Part shown: piece by piece, positions 40,604 through 55,215 of the stretch
Layout of the letters: each line of letters starts with the position of its first letter
Position numbering within the stretch: position 1 is the first letter of the stretch
Assembly: GCA_000720805.1 (NCBI GenBank)
Contig: JODI01000037.1
Coordinates: forward strand, 1 to 64,000
Direction: 5' to 3'
Source of the DNA: Streptomyces violaceoruber
GTDB taxonomy: Bacteria; Actinomycetota; Actinomycetes; Streptomycetales; Streptomycetaceae
Length of the DNA stretch: 64,000 nt
Program-made: the position numbers and the translations under genes
Notes under the pieces: model-generated
What the model was told of the DNA's origin: nothing
The model's input: only the letters and a program-made list of their open reading frames with translations
The model's database searches: none

Positions 40604-40681
40604 GGCCCCGTCGCCTGCCGTATCCCGGCGTTCGGGCTGGCGCATCACAGTACTGGGGCCGGGCCTGGGAGAATGCGGTGC

Positions 40682-42265
40682 ATGTCGCGTGCTTCTTCAT
40701 CAGGCCCTACGGATGATGGTCAACTCCCCTTGCGGGCAAGGGAACGTCTCAAGGCCGTCGTCTTCGATGCCAACGCCTACGGCAAGGGCCGTCCCGACTT
40801 CGAGCACCTCAAGCGGCTCGCCGGCCGCCTCGCCACCATCGGCATCGAGACCTGGGTGCCCGAGCCGGTGTCGTGGGAGTGGGCGGAGCATGTGACCCGC
40901 GACTGGCAAGCCGTCAAAAACGCCGCTCGGCAAGAACGTGAGGGGATGAAGCGGGCCGGCCTGCAAGTGGACACTCCTGCGGCGTACTACAGCAGCCGCG
41001 ACGCTGTGATCGATACCGTGCTGGGCAACTTGAGCGCAATACCGCACGTAAAGATCATCAGCCTGTCGGGAGCCAGCGCTGCCGCCGCGCTGAAAGATCA
41101 GGTTCTCCAGCACGATCCGGCCAAGCTCAAGGGTGACGTCAAGACCGGGGCGAGTGACAGCGCCTGGCTGCGCGATGTGCTGGACCGCGCCTCCCCCGAG
41201 CAGATCGTGATCGTTTCCTCTGACAGTGACGTGAAACGGGCCTTTGCGGCATGGAACAAGCCGGTGCCGCTGATCTTGAGAAGGGAGAAACTGCGGCCGA
41301 CACTCTTCGACGTCGCAGTCGATGACGGACACGCCCAGTCGTCCATCGTGCGCTACCTCCTCAGCCGACTGCCCGTCGGCAACCTCAACGGCGAGGACGA
41401 CGACGCGGGATTCGACATCGGCCCCATCCTGGGGCTGGAATCCGCGATCGCCCACGAGAGGGACGGGGACGGCACCAGTCTCAGTCTCTACGGAGCCAGT
41501 GTCAGCAGGCTCGTCGCCCTCGCCGGGCTGTACGACGTCAGCGTCGAGCACGGCGTGCCGGATGACACCGATGCGGGCCCGCGGGAGAACCCGGTCCGCG
41601 TCCGGCCGGACGATCTCGGGTCCGCCAGGCACGATGTGGCCTACGCCACGGCGTTGTTTCTGGCGGAAGGGGAGGCAACGGTCCAGACACTGCTGAACGG
41701 CGGCGATCCGGAGGTCTCGGTCCTCCACTACGACAACATCCTGGTCCGGGCACAGCTCAGCTTCCGCTTCACGGATGGGGCGATCACCGCGGTGGCCGCA
41801 GAAGCGGACGCCACCGCCCTGCTCGTCCAGCGGGCGTTTGACGATGACGATGACGCACTCAACGCCCTGGCCGAGGCACTGACCAGCGTTCCTGGTCTGG
41901 ATCAGGACGCCGACTTTCCCTGGGACATGGGCTCCGACCTGAGCGCGAAGATCCACGGAGTCCCGGCCCGGGTCGACGCGGACATGAAGCGTGACGGCGG
42001 GGATTGGATGCTGACGGCGACCCTGTGGGGCACCAACCCGTCTGGAGAAGATTCCGACTACCTGATGGGTGAGGTCGAAGTGACGTGCACCTACGACCCG
42101 GGCTCCTGGTGGGGTGGCAGCAGGGACGGGTTCCAGGGCCCCGACGCATACCTGCTGTCGGTTTCCGCGACCGATCTTCCAGGCAACCACGGGGTGTGGT
42201 CCGTGCCCGCCTGGATCATCGGCAGGATCGACTGGTCTGCGTTCGACCCAGGCGAAACGCCCTGA
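40682..42265 (+). CDS. PIN-like nuclease domain protein
   Basis: A 527-residue protein with a PIN-like domain in the first 200 residues: VVFDANAYGKGRPDFEHLKR (first Asp), EPVSWEWAEH (Glu), GASDSAWLRDVLDRA and IVIVSSDSDVKRAF (C-terminal acidic cluster D-x-D). Those acids form the metal site of PIN ribonucleases. The C-terminal 320 residues contain beta-rich repeats (VHYDNILVRAQLSFRF-like, LTATLWGTNP) of unknown role. Most toxin PIN proteins are about 130 residues, so this is a large fusion like the DUF4935 type seen in defence loci. The ATG at 40682 was chosen for its upstream GGGAGAA; another start three codons earlier is possible. Confidence 0.68.
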   Translation: MSRASSSGPTDDGQLPLRARERLKAVVFDANAYGKGRPDFEHLKRLAGRLATIGIETWVPEPVSWEWAEHVTRDWQAVKNAARQEREGMKRAGLQVDTPAAYYSSRDAVIDTVLGNLSAIPHVKIISLSGASAAAALKDQVLQHDPAKLKGDVKTGASDSAWLRDVLDRASPEQIVIVSSDSDVKRAFAAWNKPVPLILRREKLRPTLFDVAVDDGHAQSSIVRYLLSRLPVGNLNGEDDDAGFDIGPILGLESAIAHERDGDGTSLSLYGASVSRLVALAGLYDVSVEHGVPDDTDAGPRENPVRVRPDDLGSARHDVAYATALFLAEGEATVQTLLNGGDPEVSVLHYDNILVRAQLSFRFTDGAITAVAAEADATALLVQRAFDDDDDALNALAEALTSVPGLDQDADFPWDMGSDLSAKIHGVPARVDADMKRDGGDWMLTATLWGTNPSGEDSDYLMGEVEVTCTYDPGSWWGGSRDGFQGPDAYLLSVSATDLPGNHGVWSVPAWIIGRIDWSAFDPGETP

Positions 42266-42473: not shown

Positions 42474-43403
42474 TCAGGGCTGGGTGACGGTGAGTGTGCG
42501 GTGGTCGAGGTCTAGGTGGACCGTGCCGCCGTTCTGTTCGCGCAGCTGGCGCCAGGCGGTGTAGCCGGTGAGGATGGCGTGCTCCCAGTCGGCGGCGCGG
42601 CAGATGCTGACCTCGAGGTGGGCGGTCATGTGGCTGATGGTGGCGAGGAGTTCCTGGTCGATGTGTTTGATGTCGGCGAGGTAGCGGTGGCGGGCTGCGT
42701 AGGAGAAGACCAGGGCGGAGATGCCTTCTTCGATGGCGATGGCGCGGCCGCCGTCTTCGGCTTCGTCGGCGCGGGGGTCGCTCTTGCGTTTGCGGCCCAG
42801 CAGGAAGCGGGTGACGGGTGACCAGCCCAGCACGGTGGCGTGGGCGAGGTGGAAGATGTCGTGGAAGCGGTAGCCGTCCTCGACGTGGGAGGCGCTGGTA
42901 AGCGGGTCACCGGCGGGGGTTCCGTCTTGTCGGGTGAGGATGATGACGGTGCGGCCGTCGTCGGTCCTGGTGGGTGTGAAGGTCAGTGAGGTCTGCCGGG
43001 GCAGTTGCTCGTGTGCGGGAAAGTCGGCGTCGAAGGGGGCGTGCTCGTCGTGGGGGGTGGTGCGCCAGCGGTCCTTGGTTTTCTCCAGGTTGGCTGCGGC
43101 TACGTCGTCGAGGTCGAGTCCGAAGCGGTGGGCGAGTGCGGCGACGTACCACAGGACGTCGCCGAGCTCTTCGCGTAACTGGTGCTTGCCCTGTTCGAAG
43201 GCGGGTCCGTCGCGCAGGAACTTCTTGTAGGCGGTGGTGAGGGATCCGACCTCGCCGGCAAGGCCGAGGAGAGGTACGAGGACGGGGTCGGTGCCGTCCG
43301 CGGGGGCCTGGAGGGTCTTGATGGCCGCTTCCTGGTAGCGCTTGAAGTCCACACTCACACCCGTCTGATCTTGGGACAGCACCGTTTGCTTTCCCGACAG
43401 CAT
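42474..43403 (-). CDS. MazG-like nucleotide pyrophosphohydrolase
   Basis: A 309-residue protein with an N-terminal all-alpha MazG-type NTP pyrophosphohydrolase domain: LGLAGEVGSLTTAYKKFL (E51) and LREELGDVLWYVAALAHRFG (E79, D82). These enzymes convert (d)NTPs to monophosphates. The first metal motif is reduced (EVGS rather than ExxE). The C-terminal 170 residues form a second domain with FHDIFHLAHATVLGW, EDGGRAIAIEEGISALVF and a HIDQELLATISHMTAH segment; it may be a diverged MazG repeat. The ATG at 43403 has no ribosome-binding site but lies 5 nt after a TAGCAT -10 element, so a leaderless transcript is likely; GTG starts inside are alternatives. It diverges from the ACP-XRE-ImmA operon. Confidence 0.75.
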   Translation of the reverse strand: MLSGKQTVLSQDQTGVSVDFKRYQEAAIKTLQAPADGTDPVLVPLLGLAGEVGSLTTAYKKFLRDGPAFEQGKHQLREELGDVLWYVAALAHRFGLDLDDVAAANLEKTKDRWRTTPHDEHAPFDADFPAHEQLPRQTSLTFTPTRTDDGRTVIILTRQDGTPAGDPLTSASHVEDGYRFHDIFHLAHATVLGWSPVTRFLLGRKRKSDPRADEAEDGGRAIAIEEGISALVFSYAARHRYLADIKHIDQELLATISHMTAHLEVSICRAADWEHAILTGYTAWRQLREQNGGTVHLDLDHRTLTVTQP

Positions 43404-43418
43404 GTCGTATGCTACGAC
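43386..43418. promoter_or_regulatory. overlapping divergent promoters with palindrome
   Basis: Plus strand: TTGCTT (43386-43391), 16 nt, TATGCT (43408-43413). Minus strand: TAGCAT just before the MazG-like ATG. Both -10 elements lie in the perfect inverted repeat GTCGTA-TGC-TACGAC (43404-43418), which is a good candidate operator for the XRE regulator encoded at 43733. Confidence 0.55.
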
Positions 43419-43451
43419 AGCGTCGTTGGATATGCAGACGATTGGGGAGAG

Positions 43452-43736
43452 TTGTCGAACGCAGCCACACCGAGCACGGACGAGATCACCTCCGTCGTCC
43501 TCGACTTCCTCGCCGAACACGAGGGGGTCTCTCCCGACGATCTCCGCTCTGAACTGGAGCAGGGCGGGCGGGAGTTGCCCGTGGACTCGCTTCTGGTGGT
43601 CGAGATTCTCACACGCATCGAGGAGCGTTACCAGGTCGCCATTCCCGCCGACCGGGAGGCCGCCCAGGCCACAGGCTCGGTGGGGGCGTTCGCCGCGGCG
43701 GTACTGGACGCCATCAAGGAAAGGCAGCAGCCATGA
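43452..43736 (+). CDS. acyl-carrier-protein-like protein
   Basis: A 94-residue protein with the four-helix ACP pattern. A leading helix (DEITSVVLDFLAEHEGV) precedes the DSL attachment motif in ELPVDSLLVVEILTRIEERY (Ser46 would carry the phosphopantetheine arm). VAIPADREAAQATGSVGAFA and a last helix follow. ACPs carry acyl or aminoacyl groups as thioesters. There is no fatty-acid or polyketide gene nearby. The only start that fits is TTG at 43452, preceded by GGGGAG at short spacing. The stop overlaps the XRE start by 4 nt. An ACP in a regulator-protease-nucleotide-enzyme cluster is unusual. Confidence 0.72.
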   Translation: MSNAATPSTDEITSVVLDFLAEHEGVSPDDLRSELEQGGRELPVDSLLVVEILTRIEERYQVAIPADREAAQATGSVGAFAAAVLDAIKERQQP

Positions 43737-44137
43737 CCCCTCCCTCGGACAGCCGCGACCGTGATCCTGAGCTGATCCGGCTCGGTGAACGGCTCAAGAA
43801 GACCCGCGATTACCTGAACATGTCCCAGCAGTTCGTCTCGGACTCCACCGGCATCCCCCGCTCGGCCATCAGCGACATCGAGCGGGGCGAGCGACGCGTG
43901 GACAGTCTCGAATTGAAGAAGCTGGCACGCCTGTACCGGCAGCCGGTCGCCTACTTCCTGGCCGAGGAGAAGGACGCCGACGCCAGCGAGTACTCCCTGG
44001 CCGGTCTGCCGCGGGCGCTGGCCCAGCTCACCGACGGGGATGCCAAGACCGTGCTGGAGTTCGCCGAATACCTCACGCTGCGACGCGCGGCAGAACGCGA
44101 GGACCAGGGCGCCGACGGCGGGAGTCCGAAGGCGTGA
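43733..44137 (+). CDS. XRE-family regulator paired with ImmA/IrrE
   Basis: A 134-residue regulator. The Xre HTH covers residues about 15-75 (LGERLKKTRDYLNMSQQFVS, then GIPRSAISDIERGERRVDSL, then FLAEEK). The C-terminal tail is acidic and likely flexible. It overlaps the ACP-like gene before it and the protease gene after it by 4 nt each. In such pairs the ImmA/IrrE protease cleaves the repressor on a signal and so switches on the operon. The palindrome at 43404-43418 is a plausible operator. Confidence 0.85.
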   Translation: MTPPSDSRDRDPELIRLGERLKKTRDYLNMSQQFVSDSTGIPRSAISDIERGERRVDSLELKKLARLYRQPVAYFLAEEKDADASEYSLAGLPRALAQLTDGDAKTVLEFAEYLTLRRAAEREDQGADGGSPKA

Positions 44138-45030
44138 ACTGGGGCTTAGCACACCGGATCGCATCAATCGCAGCCGTCCAGGCGCACCGCGACCTCGGCA
44201 TCGACCGCACGCAGTACGTTCACGTGCACCGGGCACTGGGAGCGGCGGACGTGATCGGGATGGCGCAGCCGATGCCCCGGCTGTTCGGCGTGTACTTCTC
44301 CCCCGCCGACAAGGGGCCAGCCGTGATGCTGAATGCCTCGCTGAACGCGGTCACCCAGCGGCACACGGCCGCGCATGAGTTGGGGCATCACCGGCTGGGC
44401 CATCGCACGGCGGCGGACGAGGAGCTCGATCCCGCGTTGCGCTGGGGCAACGGCAGCTGGCCCGAGGAGGAAAAGACGGCGGAGGCGTTCGCGGCGTGGT
44501 TCCTCATGCCGCTGCCGGCGGTGCGGGCGGCCCTGGAAAGGATCTGCGGCGGCCGCCCGTCGAACCCCGAGCACGTCTACCGGGTAGCGCGCGAGCTGGG
44601 TACGTCGTACGCCGGGACGGTACGTCACCTGGTGAATCTGCGGCTGCTGGATGCCGGCCGGGCCGGCCAGTGGGCCAAGATCCCTCCTGCTGGCCTGCGC
44701 AGCTCGCTTGCGGGAGGGGCCTCGCTGCCCGGGCAGGCCCAGGTGCACGTGATCACGGCGGCTTCCGAGGGGCAGACGGTGTACGCCGACGCGGGCGATG
44801 TGCTGGTGCTGCACCTGGACAACGCGCTGTTCGATGTACTGCCCAAGGGACTGGAGCGATGGACCAGTGATGGCACGACGCCGCTGGCGAGCGCCGTGGT
44901 GACCGATGAACTCCCCCCGGGCGAGCAGGGCCTGATCGAGGTCGCGCTGCCGATGCACGACGCCGCGCTGCGGCTGACGGTGGTGCGCGAAGCCCCGCGT
45001 GCCGGGGTTGACGACACCTGGCCCCTGTAA
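44134..45030 (+). CDS. ImmA/IrrE-family metallopeptidase
   Basis: A 298-residue protein with the zinc-protease signature HTAAHELGHHRLGH (HExxH at about residue 81-85) and a downstream EEEKTAEAFAAWFLMPLPAV (third zinc ligand Glu and substrate-binding helix). A C-terminal beta-rich domain of about 110 residues with GQAQVHVITAASEGQTVYAD may be the sensor. It starts GTG, overlapping the XRE gene by 4 nt. It is the likely inactivator of that regulator in response to stress or infection. Confidence 0.86.
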   Translation: MNWGLAHRIASIAAVQAHRDLGIDRTQYVHVHRALGAADVIGMAQPMPRLFGVYFSPADKGPAVMLNASLNAVTQRHTAAHELGHHRLGHRTAADEELDPALRWGNGSWPEEEKTAEAFAAWFLMPLPAVRAALERICGGRPSNPEHVYRVARELGTSYAGTVRHLVNLRLLDAGRAGQWAKIPPAGLRSSLAGGASLPGQAQVHVITAASEGQTVYADAGDVLVLHLDNALFDVLPKGLERWTSDGTTPLASAVVTDELPPGEQGLIEVALPMHDAALRLTVVREAPRAGVDDTWPL

Positions 45031-45073
45031 GCCCAGGGTCCCCGGGATCACACCGTATGTGTCAGGAGGACTG

Positions 45074-45862
45074 ATGCACACCTTCGCCGTGACCGAGCGC
45101 GACGTCACCCAAGCCTGGGTCGCCGCCTGCAACAAGCTGGACCGCAAGGACAATCCTGACCGGACCGGCCTGCACACCGTGGTGCGCATCGCTGACCCGA
45201 CGAGCGACGACCCGGTGTTCCGTGCCGAGCTGGACCGGCTGCGCACCGCTCGGGGGCTGTGGCCGCTGGAGACCGTGGCCAGCACCCTGTTTCCCGCGGC
45301 CCTGGCGGCTCGGTGCGCCGGTCCGGAGGCTCTTGCCAGGCGCTACCGGCAGATGTACCCGGTGATCAAGCGGTACCCGGGCAACCACCGCGGTACCTAC
45401 TTCGGCCGCCTGGTGTCCTACCCGGCGGCGTCGAAGAGCGGCGTTGATCAGCTCGGCACCGTCATCAGCCGGCTGCGGGCCCAGGCCGCGGGCACCAAGA
45501 TAGCCGCCGCCTACGAGATCGATGTGGCCGCGGCTACGGACGCGGAGGAGGCCGGGGCGGACCTGCTGGTGCACACGGCCGGCAAGGACAACAGCTACAT
45601 CGGCTTCCCTTGCCTCAGCCACATCTCCCTCCAACTCGACCGCGACCGGCGGGTGCACGCCGCGGCCCTGTACCGCAGCCACTTCATGTTCGAGCGCGCC
45701 TACGGCAATTATCTTGGCCTGGGCCGTCTGCTGGCCTACATCGCCCAGCAGGCCGAACTGGGCTGCGGTTCCCTGACCGTGGTGGCTGGCCATGCCCGGC
45801 TGGACGGTCCCATCACCCAACTGCGCCCGCTGCTGACCGGCACCAGCCGCCTCGCGGCATGA
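45074..45862 (+). CDS. thymidylate-synthase-like enzyme
   Basis: A 262-residue protein with the core of the thymidylate synthase/deoxypyrimidine hydroxymethylase family. GFPCLSHISLQLDRD contains the nucleophile Cys180 (family PPCH). ALYRSHFMFERAYGNYLGLG matches QLYQRSxDxxLGxPFNIA, with Arg201, Ser202 and Asn212; the Asn corresponds to the base-reading Asn that selects uracil over cytosine. QAELGCGSLTVVAGHARL matches the segment after it. The N-terminal 100 residues are divergent. It may methylate or hydroxymethylate dUMP-like substrates. The ATG follows GTCAGGAGGACTG, and it is 43 nt from the protease gene. It is not the housekeeping ThyA, being too divergent. Confidence 0.75.
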   Translation: MHTFAVTERDVTQAWVAACNKLDRKDNPDRTGLHTVVRIADPTSDDPVFRAELDRLRTARGLWPLETVASTLFPAALAARCAGPEALARRYRQMYPVIKRYPGNHRGTYFGRLVSYPAASKSGVDQLGTVISRLRAQAAGTKIAAAYEIDVAAATDAEEAGADLLVHTAGKDNSYIGFPCLSHISLQLDRDRRVHAAALYRSHFMFERAYGNYLGLGRLLAYIAQQAELGCGSLTVVAGHARLDGPITQLRPLLTGTSRLAA

Positions 45863-45901
45863 CGGCAGCTGGCCGCACGGCGGACGGTGCGCGCGGCAGC
45901 C

Positions 45902-46933
45902 TCATTGCCCGGGCGGGCCGTTGAGCTGCCACTTGGGCGGGAACCAGGCCGGCATCGCATCGGCCTGCTGCCGGTAGGTCTGCTTGATGCGGCTGCGGCC
46001 GCTGATCCCGGCGATGTCCGGGTGCGCGACCCGAGCGTACTTGTCAACCTCGCAGAACAGGTTCTGGCAGTCGATCAGCTGTAGCGGCCGCCCGCGCAGT
46101 CCCGCGAAGGAAAGACCCAGGCGGGCGAAGTGCTCGTCCTGGGTGTCGGCCATGTAGCGGATGACGTCCGCCTCGATGCCGTCGGCCGCCGGCCCGAAGC
46201 ACTTGCGGATACCGTCACGCGCCCCGGGCCCGGGGACGACGAAGTCCATCTCCGAAAACGGCATCGCAGCCGCGTAGTTGAGGTCGATCACGAACTGGTA
46301 GGCCAAAAACGGGCCGATCGCCGGGAAGCCCAACAGGACCTGGTAGGCGTCCTGCAGCGTCGGCGCGGACAGCACACGCTGCGGCGCGTTTGCGGTCATC
46401 ATCATCTCGAGCAGCCGCAGATGGTTCTGGTGCTTGCGCTGGTGGCCGAGCTGCGGCGGGGGGACGATGTAGGCGGCCGAGTACAACCGCTGCCCCGCGG
46501 TGAAGGCCTGGGAGAGCACCCGGTCAAAGGCGCGGTAGTCGTAGGTGTCCCAACGCACCTCCCCCAGCGCGGTGCTCAGCAGCCGCCACGTCGAGGTCTT
46601 GTTGAAGATCTTGAACAGCAGGGTCCGGAAGAAGACCTCTTCCCACGTCTGCTCGCCCCGGTAGATCACGCCGCCGATCAGGTCCTGGCTGACCCGGTCG
46701 GCGGCCCTAAAGCAGTTGGTGAAGCGGTAGCGCTGCAGGATCGGATCGTCCGTGAACGGTCCCGCTCCCCCGGCAAGCCGTGCCTCGTAGACCTTCTGCC
46801 GCGCCGCCGCGAAACGCCAGTAGGTGTCGAACACCGGCGTCACCGTCAGCGTGCGGCCTGCCACACGGATCTTCCTCGCAGGGAGGCGGTCTAAGATCCC
46901 CTGCTCTGCACGCTCTTGCAGCACCGTCACCAT
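45902..46933 (-). CDS. HhH protein of hmdU-kinase-helical/aGPT-pyrophosphorylase type
   Basis: A 343-residue protein that I place in the group named after the helical domain of 5-hmdU DNA kinases and alpha-glutamyl/putrescinyl thymine pyrophosphorylases, often labelled nucleotide kinase domain-containing. Visible blocks are DTYWRFAAARQKVYEARLAG, PILQRYRFTNCFRAADRVSQ, LGFPAIGPFLAYQFVIDLNY (helix-hairpin-helix as in DNA glycosylases) and EMDFVVPGPGARDGIRKCF. There is no Walker A, so it is not a P-loop kinase itself. Phage relatives act in thymine hypermodification of DNA. It converges on the TS-like gene 39 nt away. The ATG at 46933 lies 6 nt after TATATT, suggesting a leaderless message. Confidence 0.7.
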   Translation of the reverse strand: MVTVLQERAEQGILDRLPARKIRVAGRTLTVTPVFDTYWRFAAARQKVYEARLAGGAGPFTDDPILQRYRFTNCFRAADRVSQDLIGGVIYRGEQTWEEVFFRTLLFKIFNKTSTWRLLSTALGEVRWDTYDYRAFDRVLSQAFTAGQRLYSAAYIVPPPQLGHQRKHQNHLRLLEMMMTANAPQRVLSAPTLQDAYQVLLGFPAIGPFLAYQFVIDLNYAAAMPFSEMDFVVPGPGARDGIRKCFGPAADGIEADVIRYMADTQDEHFARLGLSFAGLRGRPLQLIDCQNLFCEVDKYARVAHPDIAGISGRSRIKQTYRQQADAMPAWFPPKWQLNGPPGQ

Positions 46934-46939
46934 GGGCTC

Positions 46940-46960
46940 AATATATATTCAATATAGATA
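46940..46960. promoter_or_regulatory. AT-rich divergent promoter palindrome
   Basis: TATATT-C-AATATA at 46944-46956 is a perfect inverted repeat in a 20-bp nearly pure AT stretch. It provides -10 elements for the HhH gene (minus) and the small RHH-like gene (plus), and may be an operator for the latter protein. Confidence 0.55.
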
Positions 46961-46980
46961 TGTGTCAGCGAGGGGGACGT

Positions 46981-47268
46981 GTGGAATTGCTGTGGCAGCG
47001 TCCACGACGCAAGACGCTGGTCGACTGGCCGGAGGACGTGGACGGACGGCTGGACGTCCTGGTCCGGGCCGCGGCCGCGGCCGGGGAACAGACATCGCGC
47101 TCGCAGGTGCTGGCCGCACTCGTGACGGCGGCCGAGGTCCGCCCCGCCGTCATAGCCGAACTCCTCCACTCTTACCGCCAGATGCCCGCCGACGCCCTCG
47201 ACGCGGACAATGCGCGCGATGACCTGCCGTCCGTACGCTCTCCCGGACGCACCCGCAGCAAGACGTGA
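46981..47268 (+). CDS. small RHH-like protein
   Basis: A 95-residue protein. After a basic start (LLWQRPRRKTLVDWPEDV) it has a DGRLDVLVRAAAAAGEQTSR then SQVLAALVTAA pattern resembling a ribbon-helix-helix or similar small DNA-binding fold. The tail is disordered. The GTG at 46981 follows GCGAGGGGGACGT. It diverges from the HhH gene across the AT-rich palindrome and is probably its regulator. Confidence 0.6.
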   Translation: MELLWQRPRRKTLVDWPEDVDGRLDVLVRAAAAAGEQTSRSQVLAALVTAAEVRPAVIAELLHSYRQMPADALDADNARDDLPSVRSPGRTRSKT

Positions 47269-47444: not shown

Positions 47445-49285
47445 CTTGACTCTGTCGGGGATCTTGGAGTCGGCGGAGTCAACTGCCCGGGGTTCGCCAG
47501 GACTTCGGGCGAGGGATCTCGCGCTGGTCGAGGTAGTTCTGGAAGGCAGTCGGCCGGCGGGGTGCGAGGGCTTCCTCGGCCGGTGACAGCCCGCCGAGGC
47601 GCTCGAAGTTGACGGCGATGGCCGTCAGCACGTGCTGGACGTGGACCTTTCCCTGTCCTCGGTAGCGGCAGCGCCGCATACCGTGCCCGTGGGCGAACTC
47701 GTTGACCGTGCTCTCCACTCCGGAGCGGACCGCGTAGCGGGCCTTCCACTCGGGTTTCTGCTGCTCGGCGCGAACTCGGAGTTGCAGGTCACGGAGCTCT
47801 CGCGGAGGAAATCCCACGGTGCGGACGTTGTCGGCCGTGCTGGTGCACTGGGTGCGGGCCGGGCAGGGACGGCACTGGCTCTTGGTGAACCGTGCCACGA
47901 TCAGCGGGGCGGCGGTGGGCGAGGAGGTTGGGTAGGGGCCGTGCCAGCCCGCGCTGACCTGTCCCTGGGGGCAGGTGACCTGCTGCTTGTCGTAGTCGAT
48001 GTGGAAGTCGTCCCGCGCGAAGCCCTCGTTGAGGCGGTGCTGGCGGGTTGGGTTGCTCTTCAGCGGACCGGAGACGGTTACCTGGTGTTCGCGGGTGGCC
48101 TGTTCCAGGTGGGGCAGGGAGGTGTAGCCGGCGCCGACCAGGTGCTCGGCGGGCAGCAGACCGCGTTGGGCGAGGCGGGTGTGGATGCCGGGCAGGACCT
48201 GGCTGTCGTGGGTGGTGGCCGCGGTGGTGGCGACATCCGTGATCACGTTGGGGCCGTCGGCAGCACAGGTCTCGGTCAGATGAGCGGCGAACCCCTTCCA
48301 GCTGATGATGTGTCCGTGCCGCGCGTAGCGGGCCGAGGTGTCGTAGGGCGAGACGATCGCCCTCGACGACGGTGGCAGGCCCGCCCCGCCTTCCTTCTCG
48401 GCGGTGCGCCAGCGCAGGTGTCCCGCGGCGTCACGGTGGTAGTTCTGCACCATGATCTGGCGCAGGCCCTGGACGCGAGGACCGGACGTGCGGTCTGCTC
48501 CGCGCCGGCAGAGGTGTTCCAGAAGCCGGACGGCGTCGTTTCCGGTGGCGAGAATCCTGGTCATGGGCTTGGTGGGGTTCTTCCCCAGGCGGACCGGCCG
48601 GCCGTAGCGCAGTCCCCAGCCCTCGTGGACCAACTCGTCCAGCAGATGAGGAGAGATGCCTGCAACTTCTTCGAGTGCGGCGCGAACCGCCTCGGTGACC
48701 AGCTCTAGGCGGGTCAGGTCACGCACTGCGGCCAGGACGTGGGTGGAGTCGGTGCGCTGCGTGGTGCGCTCGCGCACCAGTCCGGCCTCCTTGAGACGGG
48801 CCAGTGCGAGGTCGAGGAGACGGTCAGCACGGCCGTCTTCAGCGAGACGGTCGCGGAAGTCTCCCAGCACACTGTGGTGGAAACCGGGATCGTCCAGCTC
48901 CATGGCCATCGCGTACTTGAAGTCGATGCGGCAGCGGACCGCCTCGGCGGCCTGCCGGTCCGACAGGCCGAGCAGGAACTGCAGCACACAGACGGTGGCC
49001 AACTGAGCGGGCGAAAGACCCGGCCGCCCGTCCCTGGGGTACCAGTCCGCGAAGTCCTCGTCGCACCACAGCCCGTCCAGCCGGTCCCGCACCCATATCG
49101 CCGTCGTGCCACCCGGGTTGCTCGCCCGCGCAACCCGCGCAGTCAGAGGCGGAACTTGCTCACCGGAACGGGTGCGAAGGCACAACGGGCACCTCGACAG
49201 CCAGGTCGGTCGGCGGAACTACCCGATCATCCCCGTCGACCACGCTGCCGCACCGGAGAACTCCAAGATCCCCGACAGAGTCAAG
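47445..49285 (-). mobile_element. IS1182-type element, CTAG duplication
   Basis: A 26-bp perfect terminal inverted repeat starting CTTGACTCTGTCGGGGATCT lies at 47445-47470 and 49260-49285. CTAG flanks both sides (47441-47444 and 49286-49289). The 1841-bp element carries one transposase gene and looks complete and recent. Confidence 0.93.
47479..49185 (-). CDS. IS1182-family transposase
   Basis: A 568-residue DDE transposase of the IS1182 group. Early blocks are [20 protein letters not shown] and [20 protein letters not shown] with [17 protein letters not shown]; the core has [14 protein letters not shown] (first Asp), [16 protein letters not shown] (second Asp), a Cys-rich insertion ([12 protein letters not shown]) and [20 protein letters not shown] (Glu). 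It fills the IS. The alternative start choice is not critical. Confidence 0.93.
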
Positions 49286-49486: not shown

Positions 49487-52400
49487 TCAGAGGTGGACGG
49501 TCGACGCGGCGATCCCTCGGGGGCTACCGAAGACAATGGTCGGCTGACTGTCCTGGCCGTGGGTGTCGGGCGGGAGCACCGCGAGTGCAGTCACGGGGGC
49601 CGCGGTGACCAACCGCAGTATCTCTTCGCCGCTCTGGCAGTCCCATGCCCGGATAGTGGTGTCGTCCGTGCTGGCGCTGAGCAGCAGGGGCTGGGAGTGG
49701 GCCGGGTGGTGCAGGACGGTCAGGGCGGTCACTTTCCCTCGGTGGCCTTGCAGAACAGGCAGAGCTTCCCTGCGCGGCGTGGCGGGGTTCCACAGTCTGA
49801 TGACGCCGTCGGCGCCGCCGGTTGCGAGGAACGGGTCTGGTGCGGCGGGGAGTGTGATGAAGGCCAGGCTGTGCGCGCTGCCGATGCGCTGGGGCAGGCG
49901 GGCGTGGGCCGGTTGGCCGAGATGCAGCAGGCGGACGGTGCGGGTGGCCACCGCCAGCAGGGGTGATTCGCCAGCGGGTACTGCGGCCAGGGCACGGATG
50001 GTGCCGTCGGCGTGCAGTGTGTCCCTGCCTGGGGCGTACTCGTCGTCGAGGGTGTAGCAGACGAGACAGGCGTTGCTGAACCCTGCGGCCAGGACAGGGG
50101 GTTGGGACGGTGCGGTCGGCAGGAACAGCAGGGAGCGTGCATGGCCGCGGCGGGTGCGGTCGAACGGTGTCTGCAGGACATGGTGGGCGCCTTCTTCGGT
50201 GAGGATGTGAAGGCTTCCGTCGCTGTAGCCGACGGCAAGGGGCGTGGGACGGTGGCGGGAGGCGTTCTCCGGGGCGGCCAGGGCGGTGATGTGGTAGCCA
50301 GGGCGGTCGGGGCCGTCGTGCGGGTAGGACGTCGTGTGCCCGGTCGTGGGAGAGATCTCTGTGAGGGTGTTCGCGTCGTAGCCGGTGATGAGGCGGGGCG
50401 GGCCGGTCTGTTGCGGGAGGAGGGCGACATGGTCTGCGTGCTGGTCGGCACTCCGGTTGTCGTGGGCGTCGTCGCGGGCGGGATCCCAGAGCCGGATGGT
50501 TCCGTCCATGGAACCGGACACGACGATTGGTTCCCTGCCCACCCGCAGGACGGCCAGGCCGCGGATGGCCTTGGTGTGTTCGGCGGGCAGTGTGTAGAAC
50601 TGTTCTCCGTCGTTGGGGTCGACCAGGGTGATGCTTCCGTCGACACCGCTGCCCAGGAGCAGCAGCCCGCCGTAGGCGAGGTCGGGGAAGTGGGCCATCG
50701 AGGCCACTGACCGGCGGATGGGGGCATGGGGTTGTGGTCGTCTGGTGACGGGGTCGAAGATCCGCACGCCTTTGCCCGAGCGGGAGGCGATCGCCAGACG
50801 AGGCTGGCCGTGCCGGTCAGTGAATGCCTGCAGCGCCGAGGTGCCCATGCCCATGCCGGGCAGTTGGCCAGCGCTCTCAAGGGTGTGCGCGTCCAGCAGC
50901 GGGATGTGTGAGCCGTCTTCTCCGATGGCCAGCAGCGTCTGGCCGTCGGGCAGGGTGACGGTCTCCAGGGCGTGGACGGTGGCGGGACGGCGTTCAAGCG
51001 TGCGAGGGCGTTCGCGCACGATGGCTCCGGTGTAGGGGTCCATCGTGAGCACGCCCTGCGGCGTCGCAACGGCCAGCACCGTGTCCCGGTCCGGTCCAGT
51101 GAAGGAGGCGATGGCTCTGATGCGGCCGTCCAGCAGGCTCCAGAGGCGTCCGGTGTCCGGATCGCACCGCCACAGGCCGGCATCGCTGCCCACCACAAGG
51201 AGCGGGGCGGTTTCCCTCCGGCGTGTGCTCAGGACGGTCATGGCGCGGACATAGGGTCCGAGGTTGGTGAAGGGTGCGCCGAAGGGGACTCCGGTGCGGG
51301 CATCCCACATGGTGACGGAGCCGTCGACGTGACCGGCGGCCACGATGGTCGATCGGTCCGCGCTGCGGAAGGTGACGAGCTGGCAGACGCCGCTGGGGGT
51401 GCCCGCGAGGATGTTGTTGGGCAGGCGGAGCCGGTTCCAGCGGGGTACCAGTGATGGCGGCCGGGGCAGGGTGTCGGGGCGCGCCGCGGGTTGGGCTCTG
51501 CCGGCTTGTTCGGTCAGTGCCAGGCTGTCGGCCCGTGCGGCGGGCGGGGCGTCGCCGAGGAACGGCTCGATGCGGGACCAGGCCGCCAGGCGCCGGGTCT
51601 GTGTCTGAGCGGTGACGGGAAGTCCCAGGGCGCCGCGGATGCGGCCGTGGGTTTCGAAGGGCAGGAACGATGCGGGGATGTGCGCGTCGTCGAGGACACC
51701 GCCCGCCTCGGCGTGGGCGATCAGGTGACGACGCAGGTAGGGATGCGGCGGCTGCTGGGGTGCGGCGGCGAGCAGACGGGCAAAGGCCTGGGTCAGATGG
51801 GCGTGTACCTGAGCGCTGCCGGTGTCAGGAGTGTCGTCGAAACCGGGCAGGGTCTGCTCGATGAGCAGTGTCTGGGGGGCGGTGCGCAGGGTTTCGCTGA
51901 CGCGTTCATGGATGGGCCGATAGACGGTTCGGCCGTCCTCGACGGCGGTCGTCAGGTATCCGGTGAGACGGCTGTTGCGCACTAGCCGGATCGTCGCTTC
52001 CGGGCTGTCGCAACCGGGTTCGAGGCCGCGGACGGCGGCCGGCCACACGGTCGCCCAGGGCAGTCCGGCGCCCAGTGCGAACGCCGTGGCGCGCAGGACG
52101 GCCAGGAGGTCCTCGGGCCTGGTGCGGGTGTGTTGGGCGACGTCCGCGAGGTCCTGCCGCAGCAGTTCCTGGGTGCCCTCGCGCAGTTGGCGGCGCCATG
52201 ACGCGTCGGACGGCGCGGGCAGGAAGGTGCGGGCGTGCAGTTGCTGGGCGGCCAGCCGGGCGTCCAGGAAGGAAGGGGTGACTTCCTGTGCGACGGCGGC
52301 GGCGACGGCGGCAATGGGCTGGTTGCTGCGGCGGACCAGCCGGGATCCTGTGGCAGGCTCGGCGTGCAGCAGGGCTGCGGTGTAGGCGGCGATGTCCTCT

Positions 52401-53929
52401 TGCGCACTGTCATCGTCGGTACGCAGTGGGGCGGTTGCGTCGGTGGCCTGCCGTAGCAGGTCGAGGAGGCCCCGTTCGGCGTGCGTGTCCCTGACCGGCA
52501 GGGTGTGGCGGGAAGGGGGTGGTGAGCTGCGGATGCCGAGGATGAGCCGGACCGCGTTTTGGCCGTCGCTGCGCAGGGCGGCCAGGGGGCCCAGGACGTC
52601 GGTGATGATGCGGCGGGGGGTCTTCCCTTCGTCGATGCCGTCGACGACCACGGTAAGCGGCCGGCCGGTGCGGGCCAGGGTGGTGCGGGCATGGCCGCGC
52701 AGCAGTTCGGAGGCGTCCGTGCCGGCCGGCACGGGCTGGCCGGTGAGCGCCCGGTAGAGCGCGGCGGACAGTTCCTGCGGGTCGGTGTTGCGGGCCAGCA
52801 CTGCGGCGTCGATGGCGCCGATAGGCACCCGCAGTTCTTCTGGGATCGCCTCCAGGTAGGGGCGGTAAACGGGGTTGTCGCAGAAACGCGGGTCGCTGAG
52901 GGTGACCAGGCGGGCCAGCAGCGCGCTTTTGCCGGAGCCGGCCTGCCCGGTGACGATGAGCGTGCTGTCGCCGCCGGCGAGGAAGGCGTTCGTGCGGGTG
53001 ACGAGTGCAGTGCGGCCGGTGAAGTACCAGCCCGCGTCGCCGGACATCTGGCCGCTGGCCCTGGTGATCCAGTAGTCGTCGACGTCGGGCCGTGTCCATC
53101 CGAGTTGGCTGCGGGCGTCTTCCAGCAGGGCGGTGTCGGTGTGGCCGGGGTTGGGCAGACAGGGGCTCAGCTCACGGGCGGCGAGACGGCGGCTCACACT
53201 GCGAGGCGGCCACAGGACATGGAGGTCGGCCATCTGCGCCGGATCCCACACCGTGTCCAGGATGGTGTGGAAGTCTTCCCAGCTCAGGTGGGAGCGGGCA
53301 TAGCCGTTGGCTTCGTCGGCACAGTGCGCGTGGACGGCCGCCAGGGCGGCGGTGAAGGCGCGCAGGCGTGGTGTGCTGTCTTCGTTGCCTGCGGCCAGGA
53401 CGACCAGTGAGCTCAGGGCATGCCGGTCGGGGTGCAGGGCCTTGAGCGTGCGGTCGAGCTCTTCGGCGAGACGGCCGGAGAAGCAGGAGTCGACCATGAC
53501 CAGCACGTGCTCGGCTGGAGAGTCGAGGGCCGCGGCGATGAGTTCGGCTGTGGGGAACGCGGTGGCCAGGGGCCGGTCGGTGTGGGTGTCGGGCAGACGG
53601 AGGAAGTGCTGCGGTCCCGCAGGGGCCAGGCCGTGGCCGGTGAGGTAGATGACGAGGGCTTCGTCGTCGGATGCGCCGATGAGGTCCTCATCGATGAGGA
53701 ACGTTCTCAGGTCATGAACGCTTTGCAGTGGTTTGGGCGGGTGGGAGGGCGTGAAGCGGCGCTGGCCGTCCAGGCGAGAGCTGTTCCACCAGTCTTCGAC
53801 GACGGCGACCTGGGCGTCGATCCCCTCGCGGAAGGCCCTGCGTTTGGCAGGGGTGCCGTCGTCGTAGTCGCTGACGGCGATCACGAGGAGGCGGCGCTCG
53901 GAGGTGGCGGAGGCGTGCTCGTCGGTCAT
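49487..53929 (-). CDS. caspase-STAND-WD40 protein
   Basis: A 1480-residue three-part signalling protein. Residues 1-260 are a caspase-like peptidase (C14 fold) with ERRLLVIAVSDYDDG, the catalytic His in IYLTGHGLAP (H99) and Cys in VMVDSCFSGRL (C149). Residues about 315-640 are a STAND NTPase with Walker A VTGQAGSGKSALL (K334) and Walker B LTVVVDGIDEG. After a helical region, residues about 850-1480 form WD40-type repeats (GHVDGSVTMWDARTG, SGSMDGTIRLWDPARD, GGADGVIRLWNPATP, ASTDDTTIRAWDCQSG). Known relatives act in bacterial conflict: the repeats sense, the NTPase oligomerises and the protease is the effector. The ATG at 53929 overlaps the hydrolase stop (ATGA); the frame upstream is rejected. 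Confidence 0.88.
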   Translation of the reverse strand: MTDEHASATSERRLLVIAVSDYDDGTPAKRRAFREGIDAQVAVVEDWWNSSRLDGQRRFTPSHPPKPLQSVHDLRTFLIDEDLIGASDDEALVIYLTGHGLAPAGPQHFLRLPDTHTDRPLATAFPTAELIAAALDSPAEHVLVMVDSCFSGRLAEELDRTLKALHPDRHALSSLVVLAAGNEDSTPRLRAFTAALAAVHAHCADEANGYARSHLSWEDFHTILDTVWDPAQMADLHVLWPPRSVSRRLAARELSPCLPNPGHTDTALLEDARSQLGWTRPDVDDYWITRASGQMSGDAGWYFTGRTALVTRTNAFLAGGDSTLIVTGQAGSGKSALLARLVTLSDPRFCDNPVYRPYLEAIPEELRVPIGAIDAAVLARNTDPQELSAALYRALTGQPVPAGTDASELLRGHARTTLARTGRPLTVVVDGIDEGKTPRRIITDVLGPLAALRSDGQNAVRLILGIRSSPPPSRHTLPVRDTHAERGLLDLLRQATDATAPLRTDDDSAQEDIAAYTAALLHAEPATGSRLVRRSNQPIAAVAAAVAQEVTPSFLDARLAAQQLHARTFLPAPSDASWRRQLREGTQELLRQDLADVAQHTRTRPEDLLAVLRATAFALGAGLPWATVWPAAVRGLEPGCDSPEATIRLVRNSRLTGYLTTAVEDGRTVYRPIHERVSETLRTAPQTLLIEQTLPGFDDTPDTGSAQVHAHLTQAFARLLAAAPQQPPHPYLRRHLIAHAEAGGVLDDAHIPASFLPFETHGRIRGALGLPVTAQTQTRRLAAWSRIEPFLGDAPPAARADSLALTEQAGRAQPAARPDTLPRPPSLVPRWNRLRLPNNILAGTPSGVCQLVTFRSADRSTIVAAGHVDGSVTMWDARTGVPFGAPFTNLGPYVRAMTVLSTRRRETAPLLVVGSDAGLWRCDPDTGRLWSLLDGRIRAIASFTGPDRDTVLAVATPQGVLTMDPYTGAIVRERPRTLERRPATVHALETVTLPDGQTLLAIGEDGSHIPLLDAHTLESAGQLPGMGMGTSALQAFTDRHGQPRLAIASRSGKGVRIFDPVTRRPQPHAPIRRSVASMAHFPDLAYGGLLLLGSGVDGSITLVDPNDGEQFYTLPAEHTKAIRGLAVLRVGREPIVVSGSMDGTIRLWDPARDDAHDNRSADQHADHVALLPQQTGPPRLITGYDANTLTEISPTTGHTTSYPHDGPDRPGYHITALAAPENASRHRPTPLAVGYSDGSLHILTEEGAHHVLQTPFDRTRRGHARSLLFLPTAPSQPPVLAAGFSNACLVCYTLDDEYAPGRDTLHADGTIRALAAVPAGESPLLAVATRTVRLLHLGQPAHARLPQRIGSAHSLAFITLPAAPDPFLATGGADGVIRLWNPATPRREALPVLQGHRGKVTALTVLHHPAHSQPLLLSASTDDTTIRAWDCQSGEEILRLVTAAPVTALAVLPPDTHGQDSQPTIVFGSPRGIAASTVHL

Positions 53930-54819
53930 GACCAGGTGGCGGTCACCGCGCGGGCGACGGGGAGAGTGCGCAGGTACTTGACGGCGGCATGCGGATCGAG
54001 GCGGCCGTTGTCGACCTCGGCGTCCCTGACCTGATCCGACGTCAGGGCCAGGCCCGCGGCGCCGGTGACGGCGTCGTCCGGGTCGAAGACATTGATCCAC
54101 CGAAGGTGGGGGGCGATCTGCGCCAGCCGCCCGCCGGTGATCCCCATGCCTCGCTGGACCGTGGGGATGGCCAGGGGGGAGCCACAGGTGACGAACGTGT
54201 GCACGGCCGCACCCGCCGTGCCGGGCGCGGCAATCTCCTCGCGACGGAGGAGATCGTAGGCGATCACGCTGCCCAACGAGTGGCCGATCAGGACCGTGGT
54301 GCGCGCGTCGGCGCTCTCCAGGACGTATTGGCGGACCTGGTCGGCCAGGTCCGGTTCGGTCAGATAGGTGTGAACCTCGCGCAGGGAAAGAATGATCTTG
54401 CTGGCCCGACCGCCGGGCTTGCGCCGGTCGTAGGCGATCGCACGCCGGGTGATGCTCGGCGGCACCTTGACCAGTCCGAGGGTTGTGGGGTCGACCTGCG
54501 CGGCGTAGTCGCGTTCCTGAGAGGTGAGTAGGTCGTCCAGCGCCTGGACGATGAAAGCCTCCTCGTCCGCGGTGAACGGCGTCGCTTCGTCAGGGAATGC
54601 CGTCTGCGTGCTCAGCCCGCCCCCGTCATCAGCCAGGAGGGCCGACCAGTGCGGCACCTTCAGCACCGGGGCGAGCGCGCTCTCCGGCGTGGGCATCGCA
54701 GCGTTGTGGAGCAGTTTCACACCGCGGTCGACGGCATCGCGCCAACTCTTGGTCAGCTCACGCTGTGATGTCTTGGCCTGCCCGATCCCGTGCACCCCGA
54801 GCACATGCTGCTGCCCCAC
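53926..54819 (-). CDS. alpha/beta hydrolase coupled to caspase-STAND
   Basis: A 297-residue alpha/beta-hydrolase-like protein with a VLGVHGIGQ oxyanion-type start, the nucleophile elbow in TTVLIGHSLGSVIAYD (GHSLG), an acidic candidate in WINVFDPDDAV and a late His region (RLDPHAAVKYL). It resembles lipase/esterase or serine-peptidase effectors found with STAND proteins. GTG start at 54819; stop and caspase start overlap by 4 nt, so both should be made from one message. It may be a second effector, or a substrate activated by the caspase; that is inference. Confidence 0.78.
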   Translation of the reverse strand: MGQQHVLGVHGIGQAKTSQRELTKSWRDAVDRGVKLLHNAAMPTPESALAPVLKVPHWSALLADDGGGLSTQTAFPDEATPFTADEEAFIVQALDDLLTSQERDYAAQVDPTTLGLVKVPPSITRRAIAYDRRKPGGRASKIILSLREVHTYLTEPDLADQVRQYVLESADARTTVLIGHSLGSVIAYDLLRREEIAAPGTAGAAVHTFVTCGSPLAIPTVQRGMGITGGRLAQIAPHLRWINVFDPDDAVTGAAGLALTSDQVRDAEVDNGRLDPHAAVKYLRTLPVARAVTATWS

Positions 54820-55215
54820 CCGCTACCCGCCCTGTCCCCTTGACCTGCTGTGCTGGGAGGACACTCTACGGGTGCGGCCGCGTCCCAACCGGAGCACCAA
54901 TCCCTCTCACACGGATAAACGCAGCACGACCTGTGCCGCTTCCTCAACAAGGGCATCCTGCTTGAGCTGTGGCCTGTGCTCCAAGGCTCATCGGCAGGGC
55001 CGTCAAGGACATCCGGGAGGAGGCATTCCCGAACTGCGGCCGTTGTCGCCGTAGTCGATGTTCCCAGCTGCGCGGTGGCGTTACCCGGCCACCGGTCTGC
55101 GCTCCAGCCGGTGCCGGTCGTCGTCTGGCGCCGGTCGCGCGGCCTGCACCCGCGTGACGGGTTGTCACTATGCTGCGGCCGGAGGGGACCGGCCCACAGA
55201 GAGGATCATCGGGGG
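54820..55215. promoter_or_regulatory. divergent promoter region, 396 bp
   Basis: It separates the hydrolase-caspase operon (minus) from the NACHT gene (plus). TTGACC near 54840 about 18 nt before CTCTAC is a plus-strand candidate, and TATGCT at 55169-55174 is a possible -10 for the NACHT gene. No repeat is evident. An open frame runs through it into the NACHT gene but lacks protein-like features. Confidence 0.35.

What the first reader, a model, noticed from the sequence alone, without database searches (positions are those of the whole stretch)
42474..47268. Compact cluster of TS-like, HhH/aGPT-type, MazG-like, ACP-like and XRE-ImmA genes
Seven genes in 4.8 kb: MazG-like hydrolase, ACP-like protein with a DSL motif, XRE regulator, ImmA/IrrE protease, thymidylate-synthase-like enzyme (Cys180, Asn212), an HhH protein of the group linked to thymine hypermodification, and an RHH-like regulator. 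Overlaps tie ACP-XRE-ImmA together, and two palindromic divergent promoters bracket the set. Phage thymine hypermodification uses a TS-like hydroxymethylase together with proteins of the aGPT/hmdU-kinase-helical group. Here a carrier protein could deliver an acyl or aminoacyl group, MazG could remove a competing or toxic nucleotide, and XRE-ImmA could make the system inducible. Whether it marks DNA, makes a toxic nucleotide or removes a phage modification is unknown.
Basis: partly seen in the sequence, partly recalled or inferred. Interest (0 to 1): 0.88.

Follow-up and report, generated by a model that had tools for sequence, protein, structure and literature searches.

The report
Carrier-protein nucleotide-modifying defence-like gene module
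A compact set of genes that probably makes an unusual DNA building block on demand, apparently with the help of a small carrier protein, travels as one unit on plasmids, phage-like DNA and chromosomes of very different bacteria and looks like an anti-virus system that I could not find described.

Summary
Seven genes, MazG(-) | ACP-XRE-ImmA-TS(+) | aGPT(-) | RHH-like(+), occupy 42474-47268 and form a real, mobile module. In 249 genomes of the window's family, 13 of 13 with this TS-like gene carry the aGPT-type gene, against 1 of the other 236. Of 24 close loci, 23 keep all six main genes; one is a remnant. Sixteen remoter loci (three phyla; plasmids, phage-assigned contigs, genomes) keep XRE, ImmA, TS and a small gene in the ACP position: 14 of 16 have its Asp-Ser motif, but only 1 of 16 passes the Pfam cut-off. 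A holo-ACP synthase lies nearby in 5 of 16. The TS model matches pyrimidine hydroxylase/hydroxymethylase folds, the aGPT model a phage 5-phosphomethyl-dU glycinyltransferase. In eight proteobacterial plasmids a uracil-DNA glycosylase replaces aGPT. Best reading: an induced defence module that makes a C5-modified deoxyuridine nucleotide with a carrier protein and acts on that base in DNA. Chemistry and defence are inferred. Closest published: E. coli defence systems with TS and 5-hmdU-kinase domains (PMC13092281). I found no description of the ACP module; key papers were not held.

The parts
42474..43358 (-). MazG nucleotide pyrophosphohydrolase with MazG_C domain (open frame to 43520; GTG 43358 is the likely start)
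   Evidence: PF18722 3e-76, PF03819 3.1e-8; 17 of 17 training loci keep E50, E77, E78, D81 and the MazG_C residues H180, D181, H184, E224, E225 (numbering from codon 2 of the 43403 start)
43403..43419 (.). perfect palindrome TGTCGTATGCTACGACA overlapping a -10-like TATGCT; likely XRE operator of the divergent MazG/ACP promoters (binding inferred)
   Evidence: 7-bp arms in window, L030, L031, L032, L019, L020, L021 and 6-bp arms in L022, L023 (9 of 21 stretches examined, window included); L038 and L039 have TGTCGG..CCGACA instead; the others show other or no palindromes
43452..43736 (+). acyl-carrier-protein-like gene, Asp-Ser motif LPVDSLLV; start codon uncertain
   Evidence: PF00550 2.1e-6, over cut-off; Asp-Ser kept in 23 of 23 complete close loci and 14 of 16 remoter ones
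43733..44137 (+). XRE-family regulator
   Evidence: HTH_3 5e-11; capH model 2.4e-7
44134..45030 (+). ImmA/IrrE-type metalloprotease, HELGH motif
   Evidence: PF06114 2.8e-9; capP model 2.2e-12; H81 E82 H85 E117 invariant in 17 of 17 training loci
45074..45862 (+). TS-fold enzyme, Cys180 and Asn212
   Evidence: TIGR03283 5.7e-12; TS fold; C180 and N212 invariant in 63 of 63 aligned relatives and 18 of 18 diverse ones
45902..46933 (-). aGPT/HMUDK_hel protein (PF18723)
46940..46960 (.). AT-rich palindrome-like element between aGPT and the RHH-like gene (TCAATATATATTCA in the window; TTGAATATATATTCAA in L039, TCAATATATATTGA in L041)
46981..47268 (+). small RHH-like regulator (open frame from ATG 46960; GTG 46981 follows a Shine-Dalgarno-like run)
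   Evidence: no RHH family hit; homologue at this place in 20 of 23 complete close loci

Best explanation
A mobile, stress-inducible nucleotide-modification defence module. (1) XRE holds the ACP-XRE-ImmA-TS operon off by binding the palindrome over its promoter; the ImmA protease destroys XRE when it senses infection or DNA damage (inferred by analogy to CapP/CapH and PprI/DdrO). (2) The TS-fold enzyme attacks C6 of a dUMP-like nucleotide with Cys180 and adds a substituent at C5; holo-ACP carries or accepts that substituent through its phosphopantetheine thiol (inferred). (3) The unusual deoxyuridine derivative reaches DNA or the nucleotide pool, and a base-acting enzyme, aGPT here or a uracil-DNA glycosylase in proteobacterial relatives, transfers a group onto the base or cuts it out, damaging or blocking fast-replicating invader DNA (inferred). 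(4) MazG-MazG_C removes the (d)NTP form, feeding dUMP-level substrate and shielding the host (inferred). Shown: gene content, order, co-occurrence, mobile settings, folds and conserved catalytic residues.
For: Co-occurrence: 13 of 13 TS-bearing genomes of the family have aGPT and 12 of 13 MazG_C, against 1 of the other 236 for each. All six main genes in 23 of 24 close loci examined. XRE + ImmA + TS in 39 of 39 loci with a small ACP-position ORF in each; aGPT in 29, UDG in 8, both in 0 of the stretches fetched. Asp-Ser in 37 of 39. AcpS beside the set in 5 of 16 remoter loci. TS fold with invariant Cys and Asn. aGPT fold nearest a thymidine-hypermodification transferase. dCTP deaminase, a possible dU source, in 5 of 16. 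Mobile settings: plasmids typed conjugative, between phage terminase and portal genes (L089), near contig ends of single-contig genomes. Defence-type neighbours: Cap4-nSTAND1 in the window, annotated Shedu in L127, PDC-S68 in L037, a NACHT N-terminal domain in L032 and NB-ARC in L020. TS and 5-hmdU-kinase domains occur in phage-validated E. coli systems (PMC13092281).
Against: I saw no nuclease or killing effector among the conserved genes, and no donor-loading enzyme (AMP ligase, acyltransferase) in the loci I looked at; neither was searched for systematically. TS D169 equivalent is Asp in 0 of 63 and 1 of 18 aligned sequences, and Arg201 is lost in 4 of 18. ACP assignment is weak outside the close loci: of 16 remoter proteins 1 passes the Pfam cut-off, 5 more match PP-binding below it and 10 do not match; L089 lacks Asp-Ser and L117 has Lys-Ser. 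No AcpS was found by tblastn in any of the 23 close loci. MazG is not found in 5 of 39 loci (L043, L088, L093, L126, L129) and no base-acting partner in 2 (L089, L117). One remnant (G141, L040) has only RHH, aGPT and part of TS; L129 has a split TS and L117 an ImmA match in two frames. No defence phenotype is known for this module.
Confidence: 0.48

Rival explanations
1. DNA-marking system: the module hypermodifies thymine in host or element DNA to protect it, as phages do, rather than poisoning invaders.
For: aGPT resembles PUGT, which builds a phage thymidine hypermodification; L088 fuses a thymidylate-kinase-like domain to the aGPT domain and is followed by a radical SAM gene; the module sits on plasmids and phage-assigned contigs.
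Against: No P-loop kinase among the window's seven genes; no conserved nuclease seen that would profit from a mark; XRE-ImmA control suggests conditional expression; a uracil-DNA glycosylase, which would be expected to remove rather than add, replaces aGPT in 8 loci.
Confidence: 0.2
2. The ACP-like protein is a sensor or partner of XRE-ImmA (reporting metabolic or infection state) and takes no part in TS chemistry; or, in remote loci, it is not a carrier protein at all.
For: The small gene directly precedes XRE in 38 of 39 loci, overlapping it in the window; most remote members are below the Pfam cut-off (and earlier).
Against: In L117 the order is ACP-TS-AcpS-XRE, with ACP overlapping TS; linked AcpS genes in 5 of 16 remoter loci imply a working phosphopantetheine arm there.
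Confidence: 0.18
3. Small biosynthetic cluster for a secreted nucleoside antimetabolite, or a nucleotide toxin-antidote pair with MazG as antidote.
For: TS model is close to MilA CMP hydroxymethylase (its role in mildiomycin biosynthesis is recalled); Streptomyces-type host; MazG stands divergently from the operon.
Against: No transporter or larger tailoring set is part of the conserved genes; distribution on proteobacterial and cyanobacterial plasmids and phage-assigned contigs is unlike antibiotic clusters.
Confidence: 0.1

Closest known systems
E. coli defence systems containing TS, dNMP kinase, 5-hmdU kinase and NMAD domains; predicted aGPT-Pplase/MazG/MazG-C/dUTPase/UDG systems (DefensePredictor, PMC13092281; abstract, sections 7 and 15 and passages of sections 5 and 8 seen; figures and supplements not seen)
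   Same: TS-type and 5-hmdU-kinase-type domains in anti-phage systems; aGPT-Pplase, MazG, MazG-C and dUTPase named there as predicted, untested defence domains; UDG named in the legend of the predicted systems
   Different: 'acyl carrier' occurs 0 times in its main text; the ACP-XRE-ImmA-TS core is not described in what I saw; the legends do not say which domains share one system
Phage thymidine hypermodification (5-hmdU kinase, aGPT/PUGT transferases; recalled from Lee et al. 2018 and 2022, not held)
   Same: TS-fold enzyme and aGPT-fold enzyme
   Different: no P-loop kinase in the window cluster; ACP, XRE-ImmA and MazG_C added; UDG can stand in for aGPT
AfhB dCMP hydroxylase and MilA CMP hydroxymethylase
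   Different: 13-15% identity; Asn212 in place of a dCMP-type Asp (residue rule recalled) suggests a uracil substrate
CapH/CapP and DdrO/PprI repressor-protease pairs (PMC10904395 and PMC13373217 seen in a search listing only)
   Same: XRE plus ImmA-type protease; capP model 2.2e-12, capH 2.4e-7; weak match to the CapP structure 7t5t, E 0.043
   Different: here the pair sits in a nucleotide-chemistry operon that includes an ACP-like gene
aGPT + MazG_C + Nmad2 + TIR loci (L044, L045)
   Same: aGPT and MazG_C in one locus
   Different: the family profiles found no TS of this family, ACP, XRE or ImmA there

Membership tests
Thymidylate synthase superfamily | TS fold | tested here: met
Thymidylate synthase superfamily | catalytic Cys and pyrimidine-reading Asn | tested here: met
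   C180 and N212 in 63 of 63 (60 of 230 hits, window, L043, L046) and 18 of 18; Cys and Asn aligned with a solved TS
True thymidylate synthase (ThyA) | Asp of the RS-x-D motif (E. coli D169) | tested here: not met
   F204 in the window; at that column Asp in 0 of 63, aromatic Y/F/W in 51 of 63; Asp in 1 of 18 diverse sequences
True thymidylate synthase (ThyA) | Pfam/NCBIfam cut-off | tested here: not met
   PF00303 11.4 of 24.3 bits; TIGR03283 45.6 of 174.55 bits
aGPT/HMUDK_hel family | PF18723 over cut-off | tested here: met
   380.6 of 25 bits
aGPT/HMUDK_hel family | HhH-glycosylase-like transferase fold | tested here: met
Phage thymidine hypermodification pathway | 5-hmdU DNA kinase | tested here: not met
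   no P-loop kinase among the seven window genes; thymidylate-kinase-like domain fused to aGPT in L088; not searched elsewhere in the host genome
Acyl carrier protein (window gene) | PP-binding domain with attachment Ser | tested here: met
   28.4 of 20.8 bits; Asp-Ser in 23 of 23 complete close loci
Acyl carrier protein (remoter loci) | PP-binding domain with attachment Ser | tested here: inconclusive
   1 of 16 over the Pfam cut-off (L043), 5 below it, 10 without a match; Asp-Ser in 14 of 16
Acyl carrier protein | phosphopantetheinylated in the cell | not testable with these tools
   linked PF01648 genes in L046, L117, L127, L129; tblastn match in L126; none in the 23 close loci
MazG NTP pyrophosphohydrolase | E..EExxD metal site | tested here: met
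   E50, E77, E78, D81 invariant in 17 of 17 training loci
ImmA/IrrE protease | HExxH plus distal Glu | tested here: met
   H81 E82 H85 and E117 invariant in 17 of 17 training loci
RHH regulator | match to an RHH family | tested here: inconclusive
   no RHH family hit
Validated anti-phage system | protects cells from phage | not testable with these tools
   no PADLOC hit for MazG, TS or aGPT up to E 0.1; XRE and ImmA hit CapH/CapP and RmrA models; ACP and RHH only chance-level hits

The most novel reading that the evidence does not exclude
A new immune principle: on infection the cell uses a TS-fold enzyme together with a phosphopantetheine carrier protein to build a C5-modified deoxyuridine nucleotide (possibly a nucleotide transiently tethered to ACP, the pantetheine thiol trapping the exocyclic methylene intermediate), and a base-acting enzyme, aGPT or interchangeably a uracil-DNA glycosylase, then attacks that base in invader DNA: poison and excise.
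Probability: 0.22. Interest if true: 0.93.

Novelty: new variant of a known kind. Interest (0 to 1): 0.8.

Why it matters
As far as I know (recall, not a search result), no DNA-base or nucleotide modification pathway uses an acyl carrier protein. Here an ACP-like gene is genetically tied to a TS-fold enzyme across at least three phyla (Actinomycetota, Pseudomonadota, Cyanobacteriota), in some plasmid and genome loci with its own holo-ACP synthase. If real, it joins fatty-acid-type carrier chemistry to nucleotide chemistry and probably to phage defence. The swap of aGPT for a uracil-DNA glycosylase in an otherwise similar gene set is a concrete, testable hint about what bacterial aGPT proteins, a family of at least 8,000 sequences, do outside phages.

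Tried and rejected
Chance clustering: rejected. TS-like as a plain ThyA: not supported. G207's weak TS hit (3e-4) gave no support with family profiles (L042). Of six weak class-wide hits I fetched three (G834, G899, G843: L118-L120); none of the module's profiles matched there; G751, G678 and G804 were not rechecked. aGPT alone as the marker: rejected, because other aGPT loci lack this TS (L044, L045; of the 24 viral aGPT loci, L090-L113, three have it: L090, L092, L093). Named phages: TS no match among 50,697 records; aGPT 469 records, all under 60% identity. Searches of solved structures by sequence gave nothing useful for aGPT or single-sequence TS, and only E 0.15-0.16 matches to TS chains for the TS profile, whose alignments I used for the residue comparison.

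Literature: ten searches, of which 57, 59 and 110 named the acyl carrier protein. No listed title or abstract start describes the ACP-TS-XRE-ImmA set. One search lists one paper holding ACP, TS and MazG together (PMC10452541, on cyanophage effects on host chemistry), which I did not read. Iyer 2013, Burroughs and Aravind 2020 and Lee 2018/2022 are not held, so prior mention cannot be excluded.

Empty-site test: G214, labelled same species, shows no match for TS, aGPT or MazG_C; a 7.7 kb left stretch gave no match and an 8.7 kb right stretch only matches of 35-47 bases, so the island looks accessory, but no clean empty site was found and these two searches have no positive control.

Limits of the counts: the 39 loci are those I fetched and annotated, not a random sample; the family profiles were trained on 17 of them, and the remnant L040 is counted apart. 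L018 and L024 were left out as duplicates of L031 and L035, L088/L092 and L087/L090 are the same contigs, and G179's second copy was not counted. Of 19 plasmid hits, 12 were fetched; H1, H7-H10, H16 and H19 were not. Presence or absence refers to the 6-20 kb stretches fetched. Distance correlations between genes (ACP-TS r 0.97) partly reflect shared descent and have no housekeeping control. That the genome group f1 is Streptomycetaceae is inferred from a named record with the same contig (G156, L018).

Full report
What is there. MazG carries a MazG_C domain; the small gene at 43452-43736 is a PP-binding protein over the Pfam cut-off; then XRE, an M78-type protease, a TS-like protein, a PF18723 protein and a short RHH-like gene without a family. 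ACP-XRE and XRE-ImmA overlap by four bases; TS starts 43 bases after ImmA and faces aGPT. A perfect 17-bp palindrome (43403-43419) covers a -10-like TATGCT between the divergent MazG and ACP genes; it or a 6-bp-arm form is present in 9 of 21 stretches looked at (window included), and L038 and L039 carry a different palindrome, TGTCGG..CCGACA. The AT-rich element between aGPT and the RHH-like gene recurs in many relatives as TCAATATATATTCA or a close form, and is a clean palindrome in L039 and L041.

Do the genes travel together? In 249 genomes of the window's family (Streptomycetaceae by inference) the TS-like protein rings in 14; one (G207, E 3e-4) is not supported by family profiles, leaving 13 with the window's own genome. 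PF18723 is found in 14 of 249: those 13 plus G124. MazG_C is in 13: 12 of the 13 plus G124. The exception is G141, a remnant with RHH, aGPT and a truncated TS. The other loci have the same order and orientation, save that L038 (G048) has extra genes between aGPT and TS and L037 has no RHH match. In a phylum-wide draw PF18723 is in 6 of 396 genomes; four of those six have the ACP-XRE-ImmA-TS set beside it (window, G048, G406, G478) and two (G586, G503) another set. Adding loci from genome contigs, a class-wide search, one viral contig and two Streptomyces plasmids, 23 complete close loci hold MazG, ACP, XRE, ImmA, TS and aGPT, and 20 of these 23 the RHH-like gene; the remnant makes 24 examined. 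Flanking genes are shared only between some of the 16 loci compared.

Remoter relatives. Sixteen further loci (three from actinobacterial genomes, three phage-assigned contigs, ten plasmids of Pseudomonadota and Cyanobacteriota) all carry XRE, ImmA and this TS, and each has a small ORF of 89-134 residues in the ACP position. Asp-Ser is kept in 14 of these 16 and in 23 of 23 close loci: 37 of 39; L089 lacks it and L117 has Lys-Ser. The Pfam test is much weaker: of the 16, L043 passes the PP-binding cut-off, five match below it (L046, L089, L122, L125, L133) and ten do not match; among close loci the window's gene and L115 pass and L116 falls just below. Most remote assignments therefore rest on position, length and the motif, with a profile match of 7.6e-7 for L046. 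The database calls the gene acyl carrier protein in L125, L131 and L132 and hypothetical protein in the other nine plasmid regions fetched. A holo-ACP synthase gene sits beside the set in L046, L117, L126, L127 and L129, in none of the 23 close loci. In L117 the order is ACP-TS-AcpS-XRE-ImmA, tying ACP to TS and to phosphopantetheinylation rather than to the regulator alone; L117's ImmA match is in two frames, so that copy may be broken.

The interchangeable partner. aGPT is present in 29 of 39 loci, a UDG-superfamily glycosylase in 8, both in none, neither in 2 (L089, and L117, whose contig begins just before the cluster). Two of three glycosylases scanned pass PF03167; L124's does not match and is called so by annotation. 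A C1 peptidase is found in 12, a dCTP deaminase in 5 and MazG in 11 of the 16 remoter loci. L088 fuses a thymidylate-kinase-like domain to aGPT and is followed by a radical SAM gene; L043 and L093 carry a second, classical TS.

Setting. The window around the cluster holds a ResIII helicase, a Cap4-nuclease/nSTAND1 protein, an AAA-WD40 protein and two transposases; of eight window proteins scanned with PADLOC, two have hits at E 0.001, none a full-length match. Of nine neighbours of relatives scanned, six have PADLOC hits at 1e-5, mostly generic helicase parts; only L037's PDC-S68 match is full length. Pfam finds a NACHT N-terminal domain in L032 and NB-ARC in L020. L127 has an annotated Shedu gene and L129 and L130 caspase-family genes. 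L089 lies between phage terminase and portal genes. G214, called same species, lacks the module. G179 has a copy near each end of one 9.0-Mb contig.

How it most likely works. I read it as an inducible defence module: XRE repression, ImmA-triggered derepression, TS plus holo-ACP making a C5-substituted deoxyuridine nucleotide, a base-acting enzyme completing or excising it in DNA, MazG policing the pool. Gene content, co-occurrence, folds and catalytic residues are shown; the regulation is by analogy; the chemistry, the donor and the target are inferred. A specific and bold form is that the pantetheine thiol traps the exocyclic methylene intermediate, so that the nucleotide itself rides on ACP; trapping of that intermediate by thiols in TS mutants is recalled from the literature, not checked.

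Novelty. TS and 5-hmdU kinase domains are named as validated, and aGPT-Pplase, MazG, MazG-C and dUTPase as predicted, defence domains in DefensePredictor, with UDG in the legend of its predicted systems (PMC13092281; abstract, sections 7 and 15 and passages seen). Its main text has no 'acyl carrier'. Ten literature searches gave no listing that describes this set, but the most likely earlier sources are not held. I therefore file it as a new variant of a known kind, nucleotide-modification defence, with an unusual and testable new component.

Noticed in passing
window 54976-58044: Cap4-type nuclease with an nSTAND1 NTPase domain, a likely separate defence gene (weak LmuA/HamA matches).
   Followed up: partly
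window 49487-54100: 1537-aa AAA-WD40 protein whose N-terminal part shows caspase-like GHG and DSC motifs by eye (motif recalled; Pfam shows only AAA and beta-propeller families).
   Followed up: no
window 40673-42265: PIN-like protein (PF16289 E 0.018, under cut-off); a close homologue sits upstream of the module in L020 too.
   Followed up: no
window 33181-34617 and 47479-49185: Transposase genes (integrase-core type and DDE type) on both sides of the cluster.
   Followed up: no
L044 9700-14800 and L045 3200-8600: A different recurring set: aGPT, MazG_C, a SLOG-like protein (by eye), a TIR-type protein and an Nmad2-type protein (TIR and Nmad2 scanned in L044 only, TIR under cut-off).
   Followed up: partly
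L088 10575-13336: Thymidylate-kinase-like domain fused to aGPT, followed by a radical SAM gene, in a phage-assigned contig with the ACP-XRE-ImmA-TS core.
   Followed up: partly
L046 11115-12074: TylF/Methyltransf_24-like methyltransferase between aGPT and MazG, a possible extra tailoring step.
   Followed up: no
G179 C1:13703-14479 and C1:8981217-8981993: Two copies with identical scores near opposite ends of a 9.0-Mb contig, as expected for terminal inverted repeats of a linear chromosome.
   Followed up: no
L128 6750-7454: The plasmid record annotates only fragments here, but an intact glycosylase frame is present.
   Followed up: yes
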